Below, piece by piece: positions 187-6,309 of a stretch of 50,651 nucleotides of DNA. Where the stretch lies: the NCBI GenBank assembly GCA_020027475.1, contig JAHRAZ010000109.1, forward strand, positions 1 to 50,651, in the 5' to 3' direction. The position numbers and the translations under genes were made by a program. Every line of letters begins with the position of its first letter. Within the stretch, counting starts at the first letter, position 1. A model generated the notes under the pieces. It did no database searches and was not told the DNA's origin. It saw only the letters and a program-made list of their open reading frames with translations. The DNA comes from Microthrixaceae bacterium (GTDB lineage: Bacteria; Actinomycetota; Acidimicrobiia; Acidimicrobiales; Microtrichaceae).

Positions 187-858
187 ATGGCCCTCATCCC
201 GACGCTCGCTGCGATCCTCCTGGGTGGATGGTTGGGAATGCGGTGGGGTGGTTCCCCCGAGAATGCTCTGGCCTGGCGGCCCACGGGGTGGCCTCTCGGG
301 CTGGCCGGAATCACCCTGATGATCCTCAACGATGTGATCGGGCCCGGCGGGAGTCTTGGGGTCATTCTGAGACTCCTGGCCCTCGGTCTGGTCGCAGCAT
401 TCGCTTTCCTCAACATCCGCACCGGCGGGATGATCCTGGTTTTTGCCGGGTTCGCGTGGAATTTCCTGATCACATTGTTCCTCTGGGGTATGCCGGTTTC
501 GGCTTCGGCGCTGGTTTCCGCCGGGATAGCTGACAACCCGGAGGAGGTCGACGCATTGACTCTCACGGCCGGCAGAAGGGTGGCGGAGGGAGGATCGGCC
601 TTTCTCGGCGATTTCATCCCGCTTCCGTGGGGTCAGGTGATCTCGATCGGCGACATCCTGTGGCTCACCGGATTGGTGCTCGTCACCTCCTCGGTCCTCA
701 GGCGATATGAAGTCCGAAGTTCCCGGATGTCACCCACCGCGTACAACCGCGCGCTATCCGCTCTGAACCGGGGGCCTGCACCCCGCAAAGGTCCCGGGCT
801 TCATCCGTCGCGCCTCTCGGACCGGTCATCAAGGGATTCAAGGCCGCCGCCGAGCTGA
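187..858 (+). CDS. DUF5317-like integral membrane protein
   Basis: A 223-residue protein with hydrophobic segments near residues 1-17, 35-75, 80-105 and 145-170, then a basic, Pro/Ser/Arg-rich tail of about 50 residues. An in-frame TAG at 175-177 limits the start to the ATG at 187. The alternating hydrophobic layout and the late PLPWGQVISIGDILW segment fit the DUF5317 family, which is common in Acidimicrobiia and has no known function. It precedes the WXG100 gene by 102 bases in the same direction. A role in the secretion locus is possible but not shown. The family call rests on recognition of the pattern, not on a search. Confidence 0.7.
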   Translation: MALIPTLAAILLGGWLGMRWGGSPENALAWRPTGWPLGLAGITLMILNDVIGPGGSLGVILRLLALGLVAAFAFLNIRTGGMILVFAGFAWNFLITLFLWGMPVSASALVSAGIADNPEEVDALTLTAGRRVAEGGSAFLGDFIPLPWGQVISIGDILWLTGLVLVTSSVLRRYEVRSSRMSPTAYNRALSALNRGPAPRKGPGLHPSRLSDRSSRDSRPPPS

Positions 859-960
859 GCCGGCCAACGCCGGGTTGCCCTGCCCGATGACAAAGAAGGT
901 CTTCTGGGTTCAAATGTCTCCCACATCGGAAACACCGGTGAGAATCAGGGAGGAACATCA

Positions 961-1224
961 ATGGCAAAGCTCGGACTCGATCCAGCGGCGATGGGCAAGG
1001 TGAGCAGCCAGATGCGGGCGGAAGCCGGCAAGATCGGCAGCGCGTCGGCCAAACTCGACGGCACACTGCGCTCGACCTGGTGGGAAGGCAAGGATGCCTC
1101 CTCCTTCAAGGGCGAATGGGAGGGGCACCGAAAGGCCCTCAAGCAGGTCGAACAAGCGCTCAACGAAGCAGCCAAGCGCGTCGACAAGAACGTGCAACAG
1201 CAGCAGCAGGCGTCAGGCAGCTGA
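961..1224 (+). CDS. WXG100 family protein (EsxA-like)
   Basis: An 87-residue helical-hairpin protein, close to the family's usual 90-100 residues. The hallmark turn between two amphipathic helices is WWEGKDASSFKGEW near residue 40, which contains W-E-G. WXG100 proteins are substrates, and sometimes structural partners, of type VII/ESX secretion and are exported as dimers. The tail is QQQQQ followed by ASGS, encoded by a short CAG-rich run. No clear YxxxD/E export signal is visible after the second helix. A strong ribosome binding site (GGGAGGAA) precedes the ATG. The FtsK/EssC-like ATPase gene begins a few bases after its stop, which supports a functional pair. Confidence 0.9.
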   Translation: MAKLGLDPAAMGKVSSQMRAEAGKIGSASAKLDGTLRSTWWEGKDASSFKGEWEGHRKALKQVEQALNEAAKRVDKNVQQQQQASGS

Positions 1225-1231
1225 GCACATC

Positions 1232-4200
1232 TTGATCCCCCTACGTGTTTGCTACCGAGTGGATCACCATGGTCACCACGATCTGGAATTCGATCTCTCA
1301 GCGGACACAACAATCGGGGAGGTGGCTCAACTCGCCCTGAGTCACCTCCCCGCCCCCAATGAACTGCGACGACCCACACTGAACCATGAAGGCAGGGTTC
1401 TGGGAGGCGAACTCCTCGCTCTGGATTACGCACCGCGATCCGGAGCCACGGTGTCACTTGCACAAGACGTGGGCACCCGGTCGATGACACCCTTGAACGC
1501 TCCCGTGTTTGTCGTGAGCGGCGACGAGAGAACACAACTGGACTACGGCCTCAACCGGGTGATCCACGGAGCAATGATCGAGGTCGGGTCCACGATCACC
1601 GTGAAAGCAATTGGGGGCTCGCGTGTGACGGTCAACGGTCAGGTTGTACGGGGCGCCGCGCCGGCGGGTGATCGGACGCTCATCCGCAGCAATTCGACAA
1701 GCGCCACCATCGAACAGACCGCCATGCTCATGCCGCCCAACAGGGGCCCGGTATCGATCCATGGGTCCACACCGGCAGCAGTGAGGCAACCGGATGCGGT
1801 CGAGGTGGAACTCCCGCAGCCTCCCGCTCGGGAAAGACTTCCCGGCTTCCCGGTTCTGTCGGCATCCGTTCCGCTGCTCATGGGGGCCGCCATGTGGGCC
1901 TTCACACGCAGCCTGTGGTCGGTCGGGTTCATGGCATTCACCTTCGTGTACGTGTTGGCAAGTGGAGTTGAAAGCCGACGGGAGGCGAAACGCGAACATG
2001 CCTTCAGGGAGCAAGAGTTCCATCAGGAGCTCGAATCCACCCGGGACCGACTCACCGACATTGGCATCGCGATCGAATTGGGCGACGACACGGCTCACCC
2101 CGGCGGGCAAGAATTGATCAGTTGGTTCGAGCCCCTGTCCGAACGGGTCTGGGAGAGAACTCCAACACATCCTCTTCCACTGGAGGTTCGGCTCGGGCGC
2201 AGCAACCAACAAAGTGGCATCGTGATCGGCCCACCAAAGTCCGGACGGCCCGATCTGCTCCGCATGACCTGCGAGGTAGGCGATGTACATCGACTTCAGT
2301 GCCGGCCACTCACAGTTGACTTGGCAGATGTCGGAGACCTCACGCTCGTGGGATCGGTGGAGCGTGGAGAGGCTCTCCTTCGCTCAGTGCTTTTCCAGCT
2401 CGCCGTGCTGTGCCCACCGAGTGTGGTGGGTTTCGACATCCAGCAGTGGAATCATCCGTGGCCCTTTCTTCGGTGGCTTCCCAACAACGCTGATGCCGAC
2501 TGGACCATTCGAGTTGGTTCGCCACCGTCGAGCAGCCGACCCACGGGGACCATCGATCTGCGCCTGACACCCGGGCCCGCTGCATTGGCGGACGATCCGT
2601 CGGCCACGATTCGGCTGCGCCCCGACGGATCCTCGTGGTTGCACATCGGACACCATGAAGCCGTTCGGTTCGAGCCCGAGGCCCTGTCCAACTCTGCTGT
2701 GGAGAACCCGGCCCGGGAACTTTCCGCGTTGCGCTCCGTGGGTGCCCAACGAATCGCGAAGTCCTCGGTCTCCGACTTGACGCTGTCGGACATCGGTGTG
2801 GAGCGCTCGCCTTCGGGACTCACTGCATCGTGGGCCCAACCACCCGAGGGCCTGTCCGCGCCACTCGGCCGACTCGCCGACGGATCCACATTGCTAGTCG
2901 ACTTGATCGCAGACGGACCACACGCATTGGTGGCAGGTACAACTGGCTCGGGCAAGAGCGAGTTGCTCCGGACGTGGATGGCATCCCTCGCGTCCAAGTA
3001 CTCCGCGGAGGAACTCAACTTCATCTTCGTCGACTACAAAGGCGGTGCTGCGTTCGGGGCACTGAGGCAACTTCCCCACTGCGTCGGTCTCGTCACCGAT
3101 CTCCGCGCCGGAGGGGCACACAGGGCTCTCGTGTCACTGCGGGCCGAATTGCAAAGACGTGAACGCTGCCTGGCATCGCATGGCGCGTCATCGCTGACCG
3201 AAGTACCGAAACCATATCGGCCGGCGAGAACCCTGCTCGTGATCGACGAATTCGCCACGCTCGCCTCCGAGGTCCCGGACTTCCTGGAGGGAGTACTCGA
3301 CGTAGCCCAGAGGGGCCGCAGCCTGGGTTTCCACATGATCCTTGCCACTCAGCGGCCCGCTGGTGTCATCAGCGATTCGATTCGGGCGAACACGTCGTTG
3401 CGAATCGCCCTCCGCCTTCCCGACGCCGATGACAGCATCGACGTCGTCGGCGACCCCGCCGCCTCCCGTTTGGCCCGCGATGCACCGGGTCACGCCGTGA
3501 TCCGGTTCGGCCACGAAGAGATCCTCTCCGCCCGCATGGCTCACAGCGGAGCACCGGATGGCTCGATTTCAGCTCCACCTGTGCGCAATCTGGGTCAACC
3601 GCGAACGATGTCGAGGGACTCAGTTTCCGGATCGGCATTGGAAAGCTTGGTTGCCGAAATCGCGCGCACCCACCGAAAACTGGAATTCAGCGAACCTCAT
3701 CGACCGTGGACCGAGCCGCTACCACGCCAACTCGGGTTCGAGGACTTGCTCAACGAGAAACCTGCAAACGAGAAACCAGTTGATCCTCTCGTGCTGCCGC
3801 TCGGGTTGATCGACCTCATGGAGGAGCAACGCAGGGAAACGTTTGTGGTGGACTTCCGTCGGCGAGGAGGATTCCTCGTTGCCGGTGCTTCAACCTCAGG
3901 ACGTTCGACGACACTGGCCAGCCTCATCTGGGCGGCTTCCGAGTCGGATTCCTGGGACCTGCATCTCATCGATTGCCGGGGATCCGATCAACATATCCTC
4001 GCAGGCGATCGGCTCACCGGCTGGATGAAAGGAACCGATCACGAGTCCGTCCACAGACTGCTCAACGCATTGATCCACCGGCTGGGTCAGCCACGGCCCG
4101 ACTCGGGAAGTCGTCGCGTACTGCTTCTCGTCGACGGCATGGGGGAATTCTGCGAACAACAAGAACGTATCAACGGCGGACGGGCCGTCGACATGGTGAG

Positions 4201-5131
4201 TCGCCTCGCCGCGGAGGGCGCCGCGAACGACATCCATGTGGCTGTATCCGCCTCACGTCGCGCAGATCTCCCGCATCAACTGGCTCACCTGCTCGGAAAT
4301 CGGTTGCTTCATCGTTTCAACGACGTCGATGAACCGCTGAACTGGGACGCTCCTGGCGAATTGGCCGAACCGGATCTGCCATCCGGGAGAGCGTGGAGTT
4401 GTGAACACTGGGTTCAGGTTGCGATTCCTCCAGTCGAGCCGACTGCACCGACCACCTGTGCGCGCCTTGCGGAGCGGGTGACCCGGGGAGTAAGCACCGG
4501 AACTTCCGCGGTGACACACTCGACAGATCACCCAGGCAGGCAGCGCTGGAGCCTGCCACTGGGAATTGCCTCGACGCTGCTCACCACGGCTTTCCTGGAT
4601 CTGTCCAGACAACATGCTCTGGTGATCGGGTCCCGGGGTACGGGTCGCTCCACCACGTTGTGGACCATCGCCGAGTCTGCACGTCTGGCCGGCATCGAGG
4701 TGCTGAGGGTGTCCGCTGAGTCCCAGGGCGCACTGACCGACCTGGCTGGAAGTCGCGCAGCCGGGACCGCCAATCCAGCGCGGCTGCTCATTCTTGACGA
4801 CATCGAGGAGTGGATCGAGGAACCCGGTGCCGACGAGGCTTTGTGTGACCTGATCCGCAATTCCCGCAAATCGAATCTGCGAGTGGTGGCCGCAGCGGAG
4901 AGGGCGAGTGTGCAACGAAGCTTCGCCGACTCCGTCCTGAAACTGCGCCATGGCAGAAACGCGGTTCTGCTCGGACCACAGCCGGAGGAACTCGGTTCGA
5001 TCGTCGATACCGACATTGCCCGTCGTGACGACATTCGCTGGCCTCTCGGCCGAGGCATTCTCGTTTCCGGCGGCACCCACGAGGTCATTCAGGTGGCACT
5101 CACGGTGCTTGACGAGTCAGCCAGTTGCTAG
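1232..5131 (+). CDS. FHA-domain FtsK/SpoIIIE (EccC/EssC-like) type VII secretion ATPase
   Basis: A protein of about 1,299 residues. Domains in order: ubiquitin-like beta-grasp (about 1-85), degenerate FHA domain (about 95-190), two transmembrane helices (about 205-250), then three FtsK-type ATPase modules. Module 1 has a canonical Walker A (GTTGSGKS, near 568) and Walker B (LLVIDEF, near 670), plus FVDYKGGAAF and ATQRP motifs. Modules 2 (near 882) and 3 (near 1132) have Arg in place of the P-loop Lys (TSGRSTT, GTGRSTT). The family powers export of WXG100 proteins at the inner membrane. The open frame continues upstream into the WXG100 gene. I chose TTG at 1232 because the first beta strand begins there and it lies just after the WXG100 stop; GTG at 1259 is an alternative. 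The stop overlaps that of the opposing FHA gene. Confidence 0.9.
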   Translation: MIPLRVCYRVDHHGHHDLEFDLSADTTIGEVAQLALSHLPAPNELRRPTLNHEGRVLGGELLALDYAPRSGATVSLAQDVGTRSMTPLNAPVFVVSGDERTQLDYGLNRVIHGAMIEVGSTITVKAIGGSRVTVNGQVVRGAAPAGDRTLIRSNSTSATIEQTAMLMPPNRGPVSIHGSTPAAVRQPDAVEVELPQPPARERLPGFPVLSASVPLLMGAAMWAFTRSLWSVGFMAFTFVYVLASGVESRREAKREHAFREQEFHQELESTRDRLTDIGIAIELGDDTAHPGGQELISWFEPLSERVWERTPTHPLPLEVRLGRSNQQSGIVIGPPKSGRPDLLRMTCEVGDVHRLQCRPLTVDLADVGDLTLVGSVERGEALLRSVLFQLAVLCPPSVVGFDIQQWNHPWPFLRWLPNNADADWTIRVGSPPSSSRPTGTIDLRLTPGPAALADDPSATIRLRPDGSSWLHIGHHEAVRFEPEALSNSAVENPARELSALRSVGAQRIAKSSVSDLTLSDIGVERSPSGLTASWAQPPEGLSAPLGRLADGSTLLVDLIADGPHALVAGTTGSGKSELLRTWMASLASKYSAEELNFIFVDYKGGAAFGALRQLPHCVGLVTDLRAGGAHRALVSLRAELQRRERCLASHGASSLTEVPKPYRPARTLLVIDEFATLASEVPDFLEGVLDVAQRGRSLGFHMILATQRPAGVISDSIRANTSLRIALRLPDADDSIDVVGDPAASRLARDAPGHAVIRFGHEEILSARMAHSGAPDGSISAPPVRNLGQPRTMSRDSVSGSALESLVAEIARTHRKLEFSEPHRPWTEPLPRQLGFEDLLNEKPANEKPVDPLVLPLGLIDLMEEQRRETFVVDFRRRGGFLVAGASTSGRSTTLASLIWAASESDSWDLHLIDCRGSDQHILAGDRLTGWMKGTDHESVHRLLNALIHRLGQPRPDSGSRRVLLLVDGMGEFCEQQERINGGRAVDMVSRLAAEGAANDIHVAVSASRRADLPHQLAHLLGNRLLHRFNDVDEPLNWDAPGELAEPDLPSGRAWSCEHWVQVAIPPVEPTAPTTCARLAERVTRGVSTGTSAVTHSTDHPGRQRWSLPLGIASTLLTTAFLDLSRQHALVIGSRGTGRSTTLWTIAESARLAGIEVLRVSAESQGALTDLAGSRAAGTANPARLLILDDIEEWIEEPGADEALCDLIRNSRKSNLRVVAAAERASVQRSFADSVLKLRHGRNAVLLGPQPEELGSIVDTDIARRDDIRWPLGRGILVSGGTHEVIQVALTVLDESASC

Positions 5132-5841
5132 GCGTCGACCACTTCGTGTGAATCGCTCGGATCCAGCAGGCTGAGATCGGCAGCGGTCACCAGAGTGGCT
5201 CGAAGCGCGTGATCCACCAAGGTCTTGCGACGATCCGTGGCGTTGTTTCCACTCTCTCCATGCAGACCGCTCACACCAACCCGGGAAAACTTCAGGCAGA
5301 GGTGATCGAGCTTGCGGTTGAACTTGGACATCGACCATCCCAGACGCAGAGCACAGGCCCGGCTGGCCGGTGTGGAGAACTCGGGAGTCTCGGAACGCAA
5401 CGCCGGCTCACACAGGGCCAGGAGCAGACGGTGTTGATCCTCGTTCAGATCCACCATTCCCCATTCAAGGGTTCGGTCACCATCACCGGATTCCTCCAGG
5501 TCGACGCCGAGGTCGACATCCTCCACCACTCCGAGAATCTCGTAGGAGTGGGGGCCGGCGCTGAACCCAATGCTGAACTCGGCCATGGTGAGGGCGAGAC
5601 GACCGCCGGGCGAAACAACTGCAGAGTTCCGGCGGACCCGGTCGTGGACATTGAGCAGGATCGAACTCCCGGTGTTCGTGAGCCACCAGTCACCTGCCCG
5701 GCGCTCGAGCAGTCCGACGCGGCGGTGCAGATACGGGTTCGTGTCGATCTCGATGTCGGCGACCCTTCCGAAACTCAGCGACCCGGATGGACCGATCTCA
5801 CTTTCCTCACCGCAAAAGTCGATGAACAAACGTCCAGTCAT
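5128..5841 (-). CDS. FHA domain-containing protein
   Basis: A 237-residue protein. The N-terminal half (about 1-105) resembles an FHA phosphothreonine-binding domain: FGRVADIEID, then RR and NTGSS motifs. The C-terminal half (about 125-235) is a helical, winged-helix-like region containing NRKLDHLC, GVSGLHG and a final LVTAADLSLLD. Conserved actinobacterial FHA proteins share this arrangement. It probably acts as a phospho-dependent adaptor; the neighbouring FHA/ATPase gene suggests a role in the same machinery. The start has a clear GGAGG seven bases upstream of ATG. The gene converges on the ATPase gene with a 3-base overlap in which CTAG supplies TAG on both strands. Confidence 0.85.
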   Translation of the reverse strand: MTGRLFIDFCGEESEIGPSGSLSFGRVADIEIDTNPYLHRRVGLLERRAGDWWLTNTGSSILLNVHDRVRRNSAVVSPGGRLALTMAEFSIGFSAGPHSYEILGVVEDVDLGVDLEESGDGDRTLEWGMVDLNEDQHRLLLALCEPALRSETPEFSTPASRACALRLGWSMSKFNRKLDHLCLKFSRVGVSGLHGESGNNATDRRKTLVDHALRATLVTAADLSLLDPSDSHEVVDA

Positions 5842-6048
5842 CGAACATCCTCCCTTGCCCTCATCCGGGCATCCTCTCCAATCGGAATTCTAGCGCGCTG
5901 AGTGACGTTTCCGCCCTTTTCATATCACTTCACACACGTTTCGGCATGGAAGCGACCTGAATCGAGCGGCGATCCGGGTGGAGGGAATGCCAGCCAACCC
6001 GGTGTTCCGGATTCTGCAGAGGGCGACCACAGCGGCCAATGTGTGGGA

Positions 6049-6309
6049 GTGAGTGATGATCCCGTGATCGAACGGCGCAAGCAGATCCTGAAGTGGACAA
6101 CCATCGGCCAGCGATTCGGTTACGGCTGCTTCGGTGCGACGCTCGTGATCTTCTTCGTGGGCTTGGTCGCAGGTTTTCCGAGTTGGACCCTGCAGTCGAT
6201 CATCGTGTTGCTGATCCTCGGCTCGGTCGTGCTGTTGCCATCGATCATCCTTTCCTACGCCGCAAAGGCTGCCGATTCAGAGGACCGCGGGGAACCCTTC
6301 ACCTACTGA
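6049..6309 (+). CDS. Small two-helix membrane protein, conserved hypothetical
   Basis: An 86-residue protein with a charged N-terminus (DDPVIERRKQILKWTTIGQR), two hydrophobic helices (about 26-45 and 52-73), and an acidic tail ending in EPFTY. The pattern matches small conserved membrane proteins of Acidimicrobiia with no assigned function. The open frame runs further upstream to 5902, but the residues before GTG 6049 look non-coding and Pro/Gly-rich, so GTG 6049 is preferred. GTG 6043 and 6064 are alternatives. No ideal ribosome binding site decides between them. It is divergent from the FHA gene and convergent with the sucrase/ferredoxin-like gene, which ends 16 bases away. Confidence 0.65.
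   Translation: MSDDPVIERRKQILKWTTIGQRFGYGCFGATLVIFFVGLVAGFPSWTLQSIIVLLILGSVVLLPSIILSYAAKAADSEDRGEPFTY

What the first reader, a model, noticed from the sequence alone, without database searches (positions are those of the whole stretch)
187..5841. Compact WXG100 / FHA-FtsK / FHA locus without the usual ESX partners
Typical actinobacterial ESX loci carry EccB, EccD, EccE and a mycosin. Here one WXG100 protein and one large ATPase with an N-terminal ubiquitin-like domain and FHA domain (an EssC-like layout known from Bacillota) sit together, with a separate FHA protein and a DUF5317 protein. None of the other components is in the next 45 kb. This could be a minimal or diverged type VII machine, or the parts may lie elsewhere.
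Basis: partly seen in the sequence, partly recalled or inferred. Interest (0 to 1): 0.52.

Follow-up and report, generated by a model that had tools for sequence, protein, structure and literature searches.

The report
Stripped-down type VII secretion locus
An uncultured actinobacterium carries what looks like a very small version of a known protein-export machine, with the usual ubiquitin-like helper built into the motor and a probable exported protein encoded elsewhere in the genome, which could make it a useful test of how little such a machine needs.

Summary
The locus is real: a WXG100 gene (961-1224) and, 7 bases on, a 1299-aa EssC/EccC-like ATPase (1232-5131) with an N-terminal ubiquitin-like domain, a decayed FHA domain, two TM helices and three FtsK modules; then a convergent FHA-like gene (5128-5841). 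DUF5317 looks like a bystander. Searches found no EccB or EccD over cut-off and no YukC/EssB in this genome or in 148-198 sampled genomes of its order (no control rang for EccD; EccE, MycP, EsaA and EssA untested). The ATPase falls in neither EccC nor EssC but in a third clade of Actinomycetota, in which 39 of 46 tree rows match the ubiquitin-like profile. WXG100 genes co-occur with it. One further WXG100 domain was found in the genome, heading a 470-aa protein on another contig; all 7 sampled family genomes have such a fusion, with a hydrolase in one genus: probable substrates. Elsewhere the FHA-like gene usually lies beside a kinase-like gene, often with PP2C; no match to either was found in the window. 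Most likely a reduced type VII secretion system with the ATPase as its only recognised membrane part. Export is inferred. New variant of a known kind; relation to T7SSd untested.

The parts
187..858 (+). DUF5317 membrane protein; conserved neighbour in the family, probably not part of the machine
   Evidence: PF17248 E 1.4e-15. tblastn at 1e-3 over 51 loci finds it only in window, L006, L038, L039 and L041, on the opposite strand in L038.
961..1224 (+). WXG100 protein, 87 aa (EsxA/TsxA-like)
   Evidence: TIGR03930 E 3.1e-7, below its cut-off; dN/dS 0.037 against L006; lies upstream of the ATPase in L006, G108, G140 and G192 as well.
1232..5131 (+). Membrane-bound EssC/EccC-like ATPase, 1299 aa
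   Evidence: TIGR03928 338 bits, below cut-off; third clade in trees.
1244..1468 (+). ubiquitin-like (YukD/EsaB-like) domain fused to the ATPase
   Evidence: Leave-out profile i-E 1.8e-5 at Z=1000; family profile hits PDB ubiquitin folds, best 1e-9 and 2.9e-8 for two designed ubiquitins, 8.1e-7 for an ISG15; hhalign to three EsaB proteins: probability 67.7, E 4.9e-5.
1553..1777 (+). decayed FHA-like domain
   Evidence: i-E 0.019 at Z=1000 against the relatives' FHA profile; signature absent in 6 of 6 family members and present in 23 of 47 N-termini.
1847..1969 (+). two predicted transmembrane helices
   Evidence: hydropathy; limits set by eye, positions.
2936..2959 (+). ATPase module 1, Walker A GTTGSGKS (intact)
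   Evidence: Lys kept in 65 of 65 rows of the tree set; position.
3884..3910 (+). ATPase module 2, P-loop with Lys replaced by Arg
   Evidence: Arg in 6 of 6 family rows; position.
4628..4654 (+). ATPase module 3, P-loop with Lys replaced by Arg
   Evidence: Arg in 5 of 6 family rows; the sixth has a gap there (L006 ends before it); position.
5128..5841 (-). FHA-like protein with helical, perhaps HTH-like C-terminal half (237 aa), probable regulator or adaptor
   Evidence: Close to the ATPase in 6 of 6 family genomes with an ATPase match; co-occurrence; distant copies usually lie beside a kinase-like gene and often a PP2C. Domain names rest on signature residues and a poor model, not on Pfam.
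5902..6309 (+). small membrane protein (135 aa) with a conserved C-terminal part, divergent from the FHA-like gene; role uncertain
   Evidence: tblastn in L038-L041 and L174; could be only synteny.

Best explanation
A reduced type VII secretion system. The ATPase would form the channel and motor in the membrane, as EccC does in ESX-5 (Garrett et al. 2024, PMC11217815, introduction read). Module 1 hydrolyses ATP; modules 2 and 3, with altered P-loops, act as binding or regulatory modules. The fused ubiquitin-like domain takes the place of EsaB/YukD or of the cytoplasmic domain of EccD. The 87-aa WXG100 protein is the obligate small partner and substrate. It probably pairs with the WXG100 N-terminus of a 470-aa protein encoded on another contig, and the pair is exported. 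The FHA-like protein is what is left of a kinase-phosphatase-FHA control module. Shown: gene content, domain make-up, phylogeny, co-occurrence and the second WXG100 gene. Inferred: pore formation, ATP use, pairing, export and regulation.
For: ATPase and WXG100 are the two parts that T7SSa and T7SSb share (PMC11217815). WXG100 genes and T7-type ATPases co-occur: 46 of 198 genomes with both, 80 with the ATPase, 53 with WXG100; Fisher p 4e-16, genomes not independent. Third ATPase clade, 46 rows, SH-aLRT 99; 87/92, not starred, with an FtsK outgroup on 39 rows. Ubiquitin-like domain. EccB over cut-off in 0 of 198 genomes of the order, while the same model was over cut-off in 7 of 119 genomes of the phylum. 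EccD over cut-off in 0 of 148. YukC in 0 of 148, with B. subtilis ringing. Second WXG100 gene in the window's genome, E 1.6e-15 from a profile without it. Fusion proteins in 7 of 7 sampled family genomes, one with PF06259 hydrolase at 2.7e-23. Intact module 1. Purifying selection: dN/dS 0.037 for WXG100 and 0.189 for the ATPase.
Against: No export data. 34 of 80 genomes with a T7-type ATPase gave no WXG100 hit at 1e-6, and 7 of 53 with WXG100 had no such ATPase. In G167, a family genome, no WXG100 was found beside the ATPase. The assembly is 95% complete, so partners may be missing. EccE, MycP, EsaA, EssA and unknown membrane partners were not excluded; the EccD search had no ringing control. 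The small membrane protein at 5902-6309 may be a partner. The 470-aa protein's C-terminal part has no known domain and is only weakly conserved (E 0.010 against G019's copy). Seven of 46 clade rows do not match the ubiquitin-like profile at i-E < 0.01.
Confidence: 0.72

Rival explanations
1. It is a T7SSd-type system (the Actinomycetota subtype of Garrett et al. 2024) that has lost or scattered TsdD, TsdH and TsdI; the clade described here is T7SSd in a wide sense. (Not exclusive of the best explanation.)
For: T7SSd ATPases also carry FHA domains and T7SSd also has a single WXG100 (PMC11217815, sections read). A Rothia plasmid with a kinase, an RHS gene and an ATPase of this clade resembles T7SSd in content; that ATPase does not match the ubiquitin-like profile (i-E 0.56).
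Against: Garrett et al. report no ubiquitin-like partner for T7SSd, whereas most rows of this clade have the domain fused. No kinase match was found in the window; TsdH and TsdI were not searched for. No authenticated TsdC was in the tree.
Confidence: 0.35
2. The machine has membrane partners that are too diverged to be recognised, or that lie in the unassembled 5%, so it is not minimal. (Not exclusive of the best explanation.)
For: Draft assembly of 149 contigs, 95.4% complete; a small conserved membrane gene at 5902-6309; four component families not tested.
Against: Three component families absent or below cut-off across the sampled order. In a blastp clustering of the genes of 22 loci, apart from the ATPase (22 loci) and WXG100 (7 loci), no cluster occurs in more than 5 loci; distant or small membrane genes could be missed.
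Confidence: 0.4
3. The ATPase is a DNA translocase or conjugation motor and the WXG100 neighbour is incidental.
For: FtsK/SpoIIIE fold; distant plasmid FtsK hits.
Against: The best NCBIfam models are EssC and EccC, far ahead of FtsK. Three ATPase modules and two TM helices. The genome has its own FtsK on C49. Strong co-occurrence with WXG100.
Confidence: 0.04

Closest known systems
T7SSd (Garrett, Higginson, Palmer 2024, PMC11217815)
   Same: Actinomycetota; FHA-bearing ATPase; single WXG100; kinase and RHS genes around one relative (Rothia plasmid)
   Different: No kinase match in the window; a ubiquitin-like domain is fused to the ATPase, whereas T7SSd was reported to have none; FHA decayed here
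T7SSb (Ess/Yuk) of Bacillota
   Same: FHA domain before the TM pair of the ATPase; single WXG100; ubiquitin-like component
   Different: No YukC/EssB found; the ubiquitin-like domain is fused; ATPase outside the EssC clade
T7SSa (ESX) of Actinomycetota
   Same: ATPase with two TMs and FtsK modules; WXG100; ubiquitin-like domain exists (there in EccD)
   Different: No EccB or EccD over cut-off; ATPase outside the EccC clade; single WXG100 at the locus
T7SSb lipase TslA (as described in PMC11217815)
   Same: A lipase/hydrolase-type enzyme joined to a helical T7SS targeting domain, as in the G140 fusion (WXG100 plus PF06259)
   Different: TslA carries its helical domain at the C-terminus; here the WXG100 domain comes first; in the window's genome the second domain is of no known family

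Membership tests
Type VII secretion system (general) | EccC/EssC-type membrane ATPase | tested here: met
   TIGR03928 338 bits and TIGR03924 244 bits, below the equivalog cut-offs; two TMs
Type VII secretion system (general) | WXG100 protein encoded with it | tested here: met
   TIGR03930 E 3.1e-7, below its cut-off; co-occurrence
Type VII secretion system (general) | Secretes WXG100 proteins | not testable with these tools
   needs an organism or a heterologous host
T7SSa (ESX) | EccB | tested here: not met
   0 of 198 order genomes over cut-off, one sub-threshold match (G117), own genome none; over cut-off in 7 of 119 phylum genomes; none of the 14 standing control genomes rang
T7SSa (ESX) | EccD | tested here: not met
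   0 of 148 over cut-off, five weaker matches, own genome none; none of the 14 control genomes rang, so no positive control
T7SSa (ESX) | ATPase in the EccC clade | tested here: not met
T7SSa (ESX) | EccE and mycosin | not tested
T7SSb (Ess/Yuk) | EssB/YukC | tested here: not met
   0 of 148; B. subtilis control rings
T7SSb (Ess/Yuk) | ATPase in the EssC clade | tested here: not met
   only three EssC reference rows, one of them (L150) short with a separately annotated FHA gene
T7SSb (Ess/Yuk) | EsaA and EssA | not tested
   -
T7SSd | FHA domain on the ATPase | tested here: inconclusive
   decayed, i-E 0.019
T7SSd | Kinase TsdD at the locus | tested here: not met
   no hit below E 1 in the 50,651-base window with one kinase probe from L117; the genome outside the window was not searched
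T7SSd | TsdH and TsdI at the locus | not tested
   no reference sequence in hand
T7SSd | No ubiquitin-like component (as reported in PMC11217815) | tested here: not met
   ubiquitin-like domain present in the window's ATPase
FtsK DNA translocase | single motor module and FtsK family score | tested here: not met
   PRK10263 55 bits against a cut-off of 1566; three modules

The most novel reading that the evidence does not exclude
A T7SS subtype of Actinomycetota defined by fusion of the ubiquitin-like component to the FHA-FtsK ATPase. In the window's family it has shrunk to a machine whose only membrane part is that ATPase, with WXG100-fusion substrates carrying swappable C-terminal domains encoded far from it, and with phospho-control decayed: no kinase or phosphatase at the locus, FHA signature lost.
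Probability: 0.5. Interest if true: 0.72.

Novelty: new variant of a known kind. Interest (0 to 1): 0.6.

Why it matters
If the ATPase, with its own ubiquitin-like domain, and one small WXG100 partner suffice for export, this is the simplest T7SS to reconstitute, and it would test what the ubiquitin-like component does and which membrane parts are essential. It would also extend the subtype list of 2024: ATPases of the T7 type are in 80 of 198 sampled genomes of this order by my cut, the clade is present elsewhere in Actinomycetota, and in one genome (G279) it stands beside a true ESX locus.

Tried and rejected
AlphaFold2 on the FHA-like protein (single sequence, mean pLDDT 41.8) and on the ATPase N-terminus (two sequences, 33.5): too poor to use; no fold search was run on them. 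Pfam on the FHA-like family found no FHA and only weak single HTH hits, and a PDB profile search found nothing usable; 'FHA-like' rests on signature residues and 'HTH-like' on helices in a poor model and those weak hits. DUF5317 as a component was rejected: it lies beside the ATPase only within the family. A DNA-translocase role was rejected (see rivals). PADLOC hits of the ATPase look like P-loop cross-matches. The PF06013 model found only one WXG100 in the genome; the profile of relatives found the second. The C-terminal part of the 470-aa protein gave no usable PDB or NCBIfam match. L141, L144, L126, L110 and L145 were dropped from the tree as fragments or uncertain; L142, labelled actFHA by me, fell with EccC and was counted as EccC afterwards.

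Counts to read with care: the cut of E <= 2.8e-29 for 'T7-type ATPase' was chosen after seeing the gap to plain FtsK hits; it does not tell the clade from EccC. The cut for the phylum table was E <= 1e-50. The lists were typed by hand. One search scored at most 3 candidates a genome and at most 2, so absences there are soft. The 31 N-termini of profile A2 were picked by me from 47 as well formed. In one search window and L006 were not left out of the profile; the window was redone with both left out. Alignment A8 contains the WXG100 domains of the fusions of G000, G019, G140 and G189, so only those of G072, G108, G167 and G192 are independent finds. Start codons of the fusion proteins were not established: in G108, G140, G167 and G192 the open frame begins 61 to 288 residues before the WXG100 domain.
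Full report
What is in the sequence. The window is a whole contig, C104, of a 2.84-Mb draft genome in 149 contigs, 95.4% complete. From its left edge come DUF5317 (187-858), a WXG100 gene (961-1224) and, 7 bases on, an ATPase gene (TTG 1232 to TAG 5131). A convergent gene (5128-5841, minus strand) overlaps the end of the ATPase gene by 4 bases. The close relative L006 (84% identical ATPase) shares the TTG start and continues upstream into enoyl-CoA-hydratase-like and sortase-like genes, named by eye, so the contig edge probably hides no T7SS genes. Between window and L006, dN/dS is 0.037 for WXG100, 0.189 for the ATPase (1113 codons) and 0.120 for DUF5317.

The ATPase. Its best NCBIfam models are EssC (338 bits) and EccCa (244 bits), both below cut-off; a true EccC (L134) scores 926 on EccCa. 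The N-terminal 75 residues or so are ubiquitin-like. A profile of 31 relatives hits two designed ubiquitins in the PDB at 1e-9 and 2.9e-8, an ISG15 at 8.1e-7, and EccD1 at only 0.22; it aligns with three EsaB/YukD proteins at probability 67.7, E 4.9e-5. Direct Pfam hits to YukD are few, 2 of 47, best E 0.002. Of the 46 tree rows of the window's clade, 39 match the profile at i-E < 0.01 (most left out of the profile or never in it; window and L006 were in it) and 7 do not (L056, L115, L121, L124, L125, L127, L151); five further rows dropped from the tree do not match either, three of them lacking the N-terminus. EccC gives 0 of 16, EssC 0 of 3, stand-alone EsaB 1 of 3. With window and L006 left out, the window scores 1.8e-5. 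The next domain is FHA in the clade: 36 of 47 match Yop-YscD_cpl and 30 of 47 PF00498. It is decayed in the window's family: the GR-SxxH-NG signature is in 23 of 47 N-termini and in 0 of 6 family members, although four of the six still match the FHA profile at < 0.001. Two TM helices follow. Module 1 keeps its Walker Lys in 65 of 65 tree rows; in the window's family modules 2 and 3 have Arg there, in 6 of 6 and in 5 of 6 (one gap). Among the 41 rows labelled actFHA (L142, an EccC by tree, among them) Lys is kept in 14 (module 2) and 11 (module 3).

Phylogeny. 65 ATPases form three groups: EccC (16, with L142), EssC (3) and the window's clade (46, SH-aLRT 99); the window's family is one clade at 99 (quick tree). 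With FtsK as outgroup on module 1 (39 rows, careful tree) the clade has 87/92 support, not starred, the outgroup branch is very long, and the order of the three groups is open. ATPases of the T7 type are in 80 of 198 genomes of the order by my cut. The clade is also in other classes of the phylum and on Streptomyces, Curtobacterium and Rothia plasmids. On two Streptomyces plasmids the order is larger protein - WXG100 - ATPase; one of the larger proteins has the Pfam T7SS signal domain (E 2e-6), the other has none. G279 has both an EccB-bearing ESX locus and an ATPase of this clade.

Missing partners. EccB: 0 of 198 genomes of the order over cut-off and one sub-threshold match; the same model was over cut-off in 7 of 119 genomes of the phylum, though in none of the 14 standing controls. 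EccD: 0 of 148 over cut-off, five weaker matches, none in the own genome, and no control rang. YukC/EssB: 0 of 148, B. subtilis control positive. The own genome has one other FtsK over cut-off, on C49, and one sub-threshold match. Kinase and PP2C probes from L117 found nothing below E 1 in the window. EccE, MycP, EsaA and EssA were not tested.

WXG100 genes. In the order, 53 of 198 genomes have a WXG100 match at 1e-6 and 80 have the T7-type ATPase; 46 have both (Fisher p 4e-16, relatedness ignored), 34 only the ATPase, 7 only WXG100 and 111 neither. In the window's family the WXG100 gene directly precedes the ATPase in G000, G108, G140 and G192. In G072 it lies on another contig, whose stored stretch stops 46 bases after the match, and that genome's ATPase is cut at its own contig edge. 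In G167 none was found beside the ATPase. In G019 neither the ATPase nor a stand-alone WXG100 was found, but its copy of the FHA-like gene lies at a contig edge.

A candidate substrate. A WXG100 profile built without it finds one further WXG100 domain in the window's genome, G000:C143:127440, E 1.6e-15: the N-terminus of a 470-aa protein without an N-terminal hydrophobic stretch. All 7 sampled family genomes have a WXG100 domain in a longer frame. In G000, G019, G108 and G167 the part after it is of no kind that I could name (435-470 aa from the WXG100 start; G000 and G019 scanned with Pfam, G000 and G108 with NCBIfam, G167 with neither). In G072, G140 and G192 it is an about 309-aa fusion with a GHSYGG motif, G140's being PF06259 hydrolase at 2.7e-23; the other two were not scanned with Pfam. 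Near the copies of G000, G019 and G108 lie orthologues (84% and 76% identity) of one amidohydrolase-like gene, named by eye and without an NCBIfam hit; none was found in the stretch read from G167. So at least three are probably one orthologous locus. Similarity of the C-terminal parts is weak (E 0.010 for G000 and G019). In G189, of another family, a 540-aa frame with a WXG100 domain lies beside a small WXG100 gene and the ATPase. These fit the pattern of T7SS substrates encoded with small WXG100-related partners (PMC11217815).

The FHA-like protein. Its family is found in 12 of 296 phylum genomes. Leaving out the window, 9 of 11 such genomes have an ATPase match at 1e-50 or better, against 36 of 295 overall (p 1e-7, relatedness ignored). 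It adjoins the ATPase in five family genomes, lies next to the ATPase match in the sixth, G167, and directly precedes the ATPase in G205. It is within about 11 kb in G095, G395 and G440, but far away or on another contig in G006, G134, G279, G410 and G450. Of the 12 loci (L166-L177), 11 have a kinase-like tblastn match, 10 of them within 1 kb of it (L175 at 3.8 kb; L166, L167, L171, L175 and L176 by weaker matches of 33-37% identity), and 7 also a PP2C match; the exception, L174, is G019's copy at the contig edge. G440 has both too. In G205 the order is PP2C, kinase, FHA-like, ATPase (Pfam confirms the two enzymes). The family loci L038-L041 and the window gave no kinase or PP2C match at 1e-5; G167 gave a weak kinase-like one (26%, E 1.6e-7) 1.6 kb away. 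So it is probably the adaptor of a kinase-phosphatase module; at the window locus those enzymes are not found and the ATPase's FHA has decayed. Its domain names remain uncertain.

Literature. Garrett et al. 2024 (PMC11217815: abstract, introduction, methods, results and discussion read) list T7SSa to T7SSj. Of these T7SSa and T7SSd are in Actinomycetota, and T7SSd is said to lack any ubiquitin-like component. Iyer et al. [quoted passage not shown] Zhang et al. 2012 (PMC3482391, passages) mention solo WXG domains with a distinct YueA-like ATPase in other phyla as apparently mobile versions of T7SS. Searches for T7SS with WXG100 in Acidimicrobiia (0 papers), for FHA, FtsK and WXG100 in Actinobacteria, for EssC/EccC phylogeny, for YukD with FtsK and FHA, for Streptomyces T7SS, for T7SSd terms and for a fused ubiquitin-like component showed no paper whose listing describes a ubiquitin-like domain fused to the ATPase; only open-licence papers are held, and apart from the three named above no hit was opened.

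Verdict. A new variant of the T7SS, with the machine's minimal nature and its export activity inferred. The name T7SSd in a wide sense cannot be excluded.

Noticed in passing
L183:9441-10853 (G000:C143:127440-128852): 470-aa WXG100-fusion protein with a C-terminal part of no known family; orthologues lie near an amidohydrolase-like gene in two other genomes of the family.
   Followed up: partly
L231:4244-5170, L227:3330-4256, L228:2464-3387: In one genus of the family the fusion protein carries a GHSYGG alpha/beta hydrolase instead (PF06259 in G140), a possible swapped effector domain.
   Followed up: partly
L166-L173, L175-L177: FHA-like gene near a kinase-like gene, often with PP2C, in widely separated Actinomycetota, in several cases far from that genome's T7-type ATPase: perhaps a signalling module in its own right.
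   Followed up: partly
L141 (G302:C20): ATPase locus with intact FHA but no ubiquitin-like match, zinc-ribbon protein, WXG100 and an LXG-domain protein (PF04740 E 3e-7): possibly T7SSd-like.
   Followed up: no
L230:4167-4838 (G167:C2): Two small WXG100 genes side by side, on another contig than that genome's ATPase.
   Followed up: no
window 5902-6309: Small membrane protein divergent from the FHA-like gene, conserved in the family; could be a partner or mere synteny.
   Followed up: no
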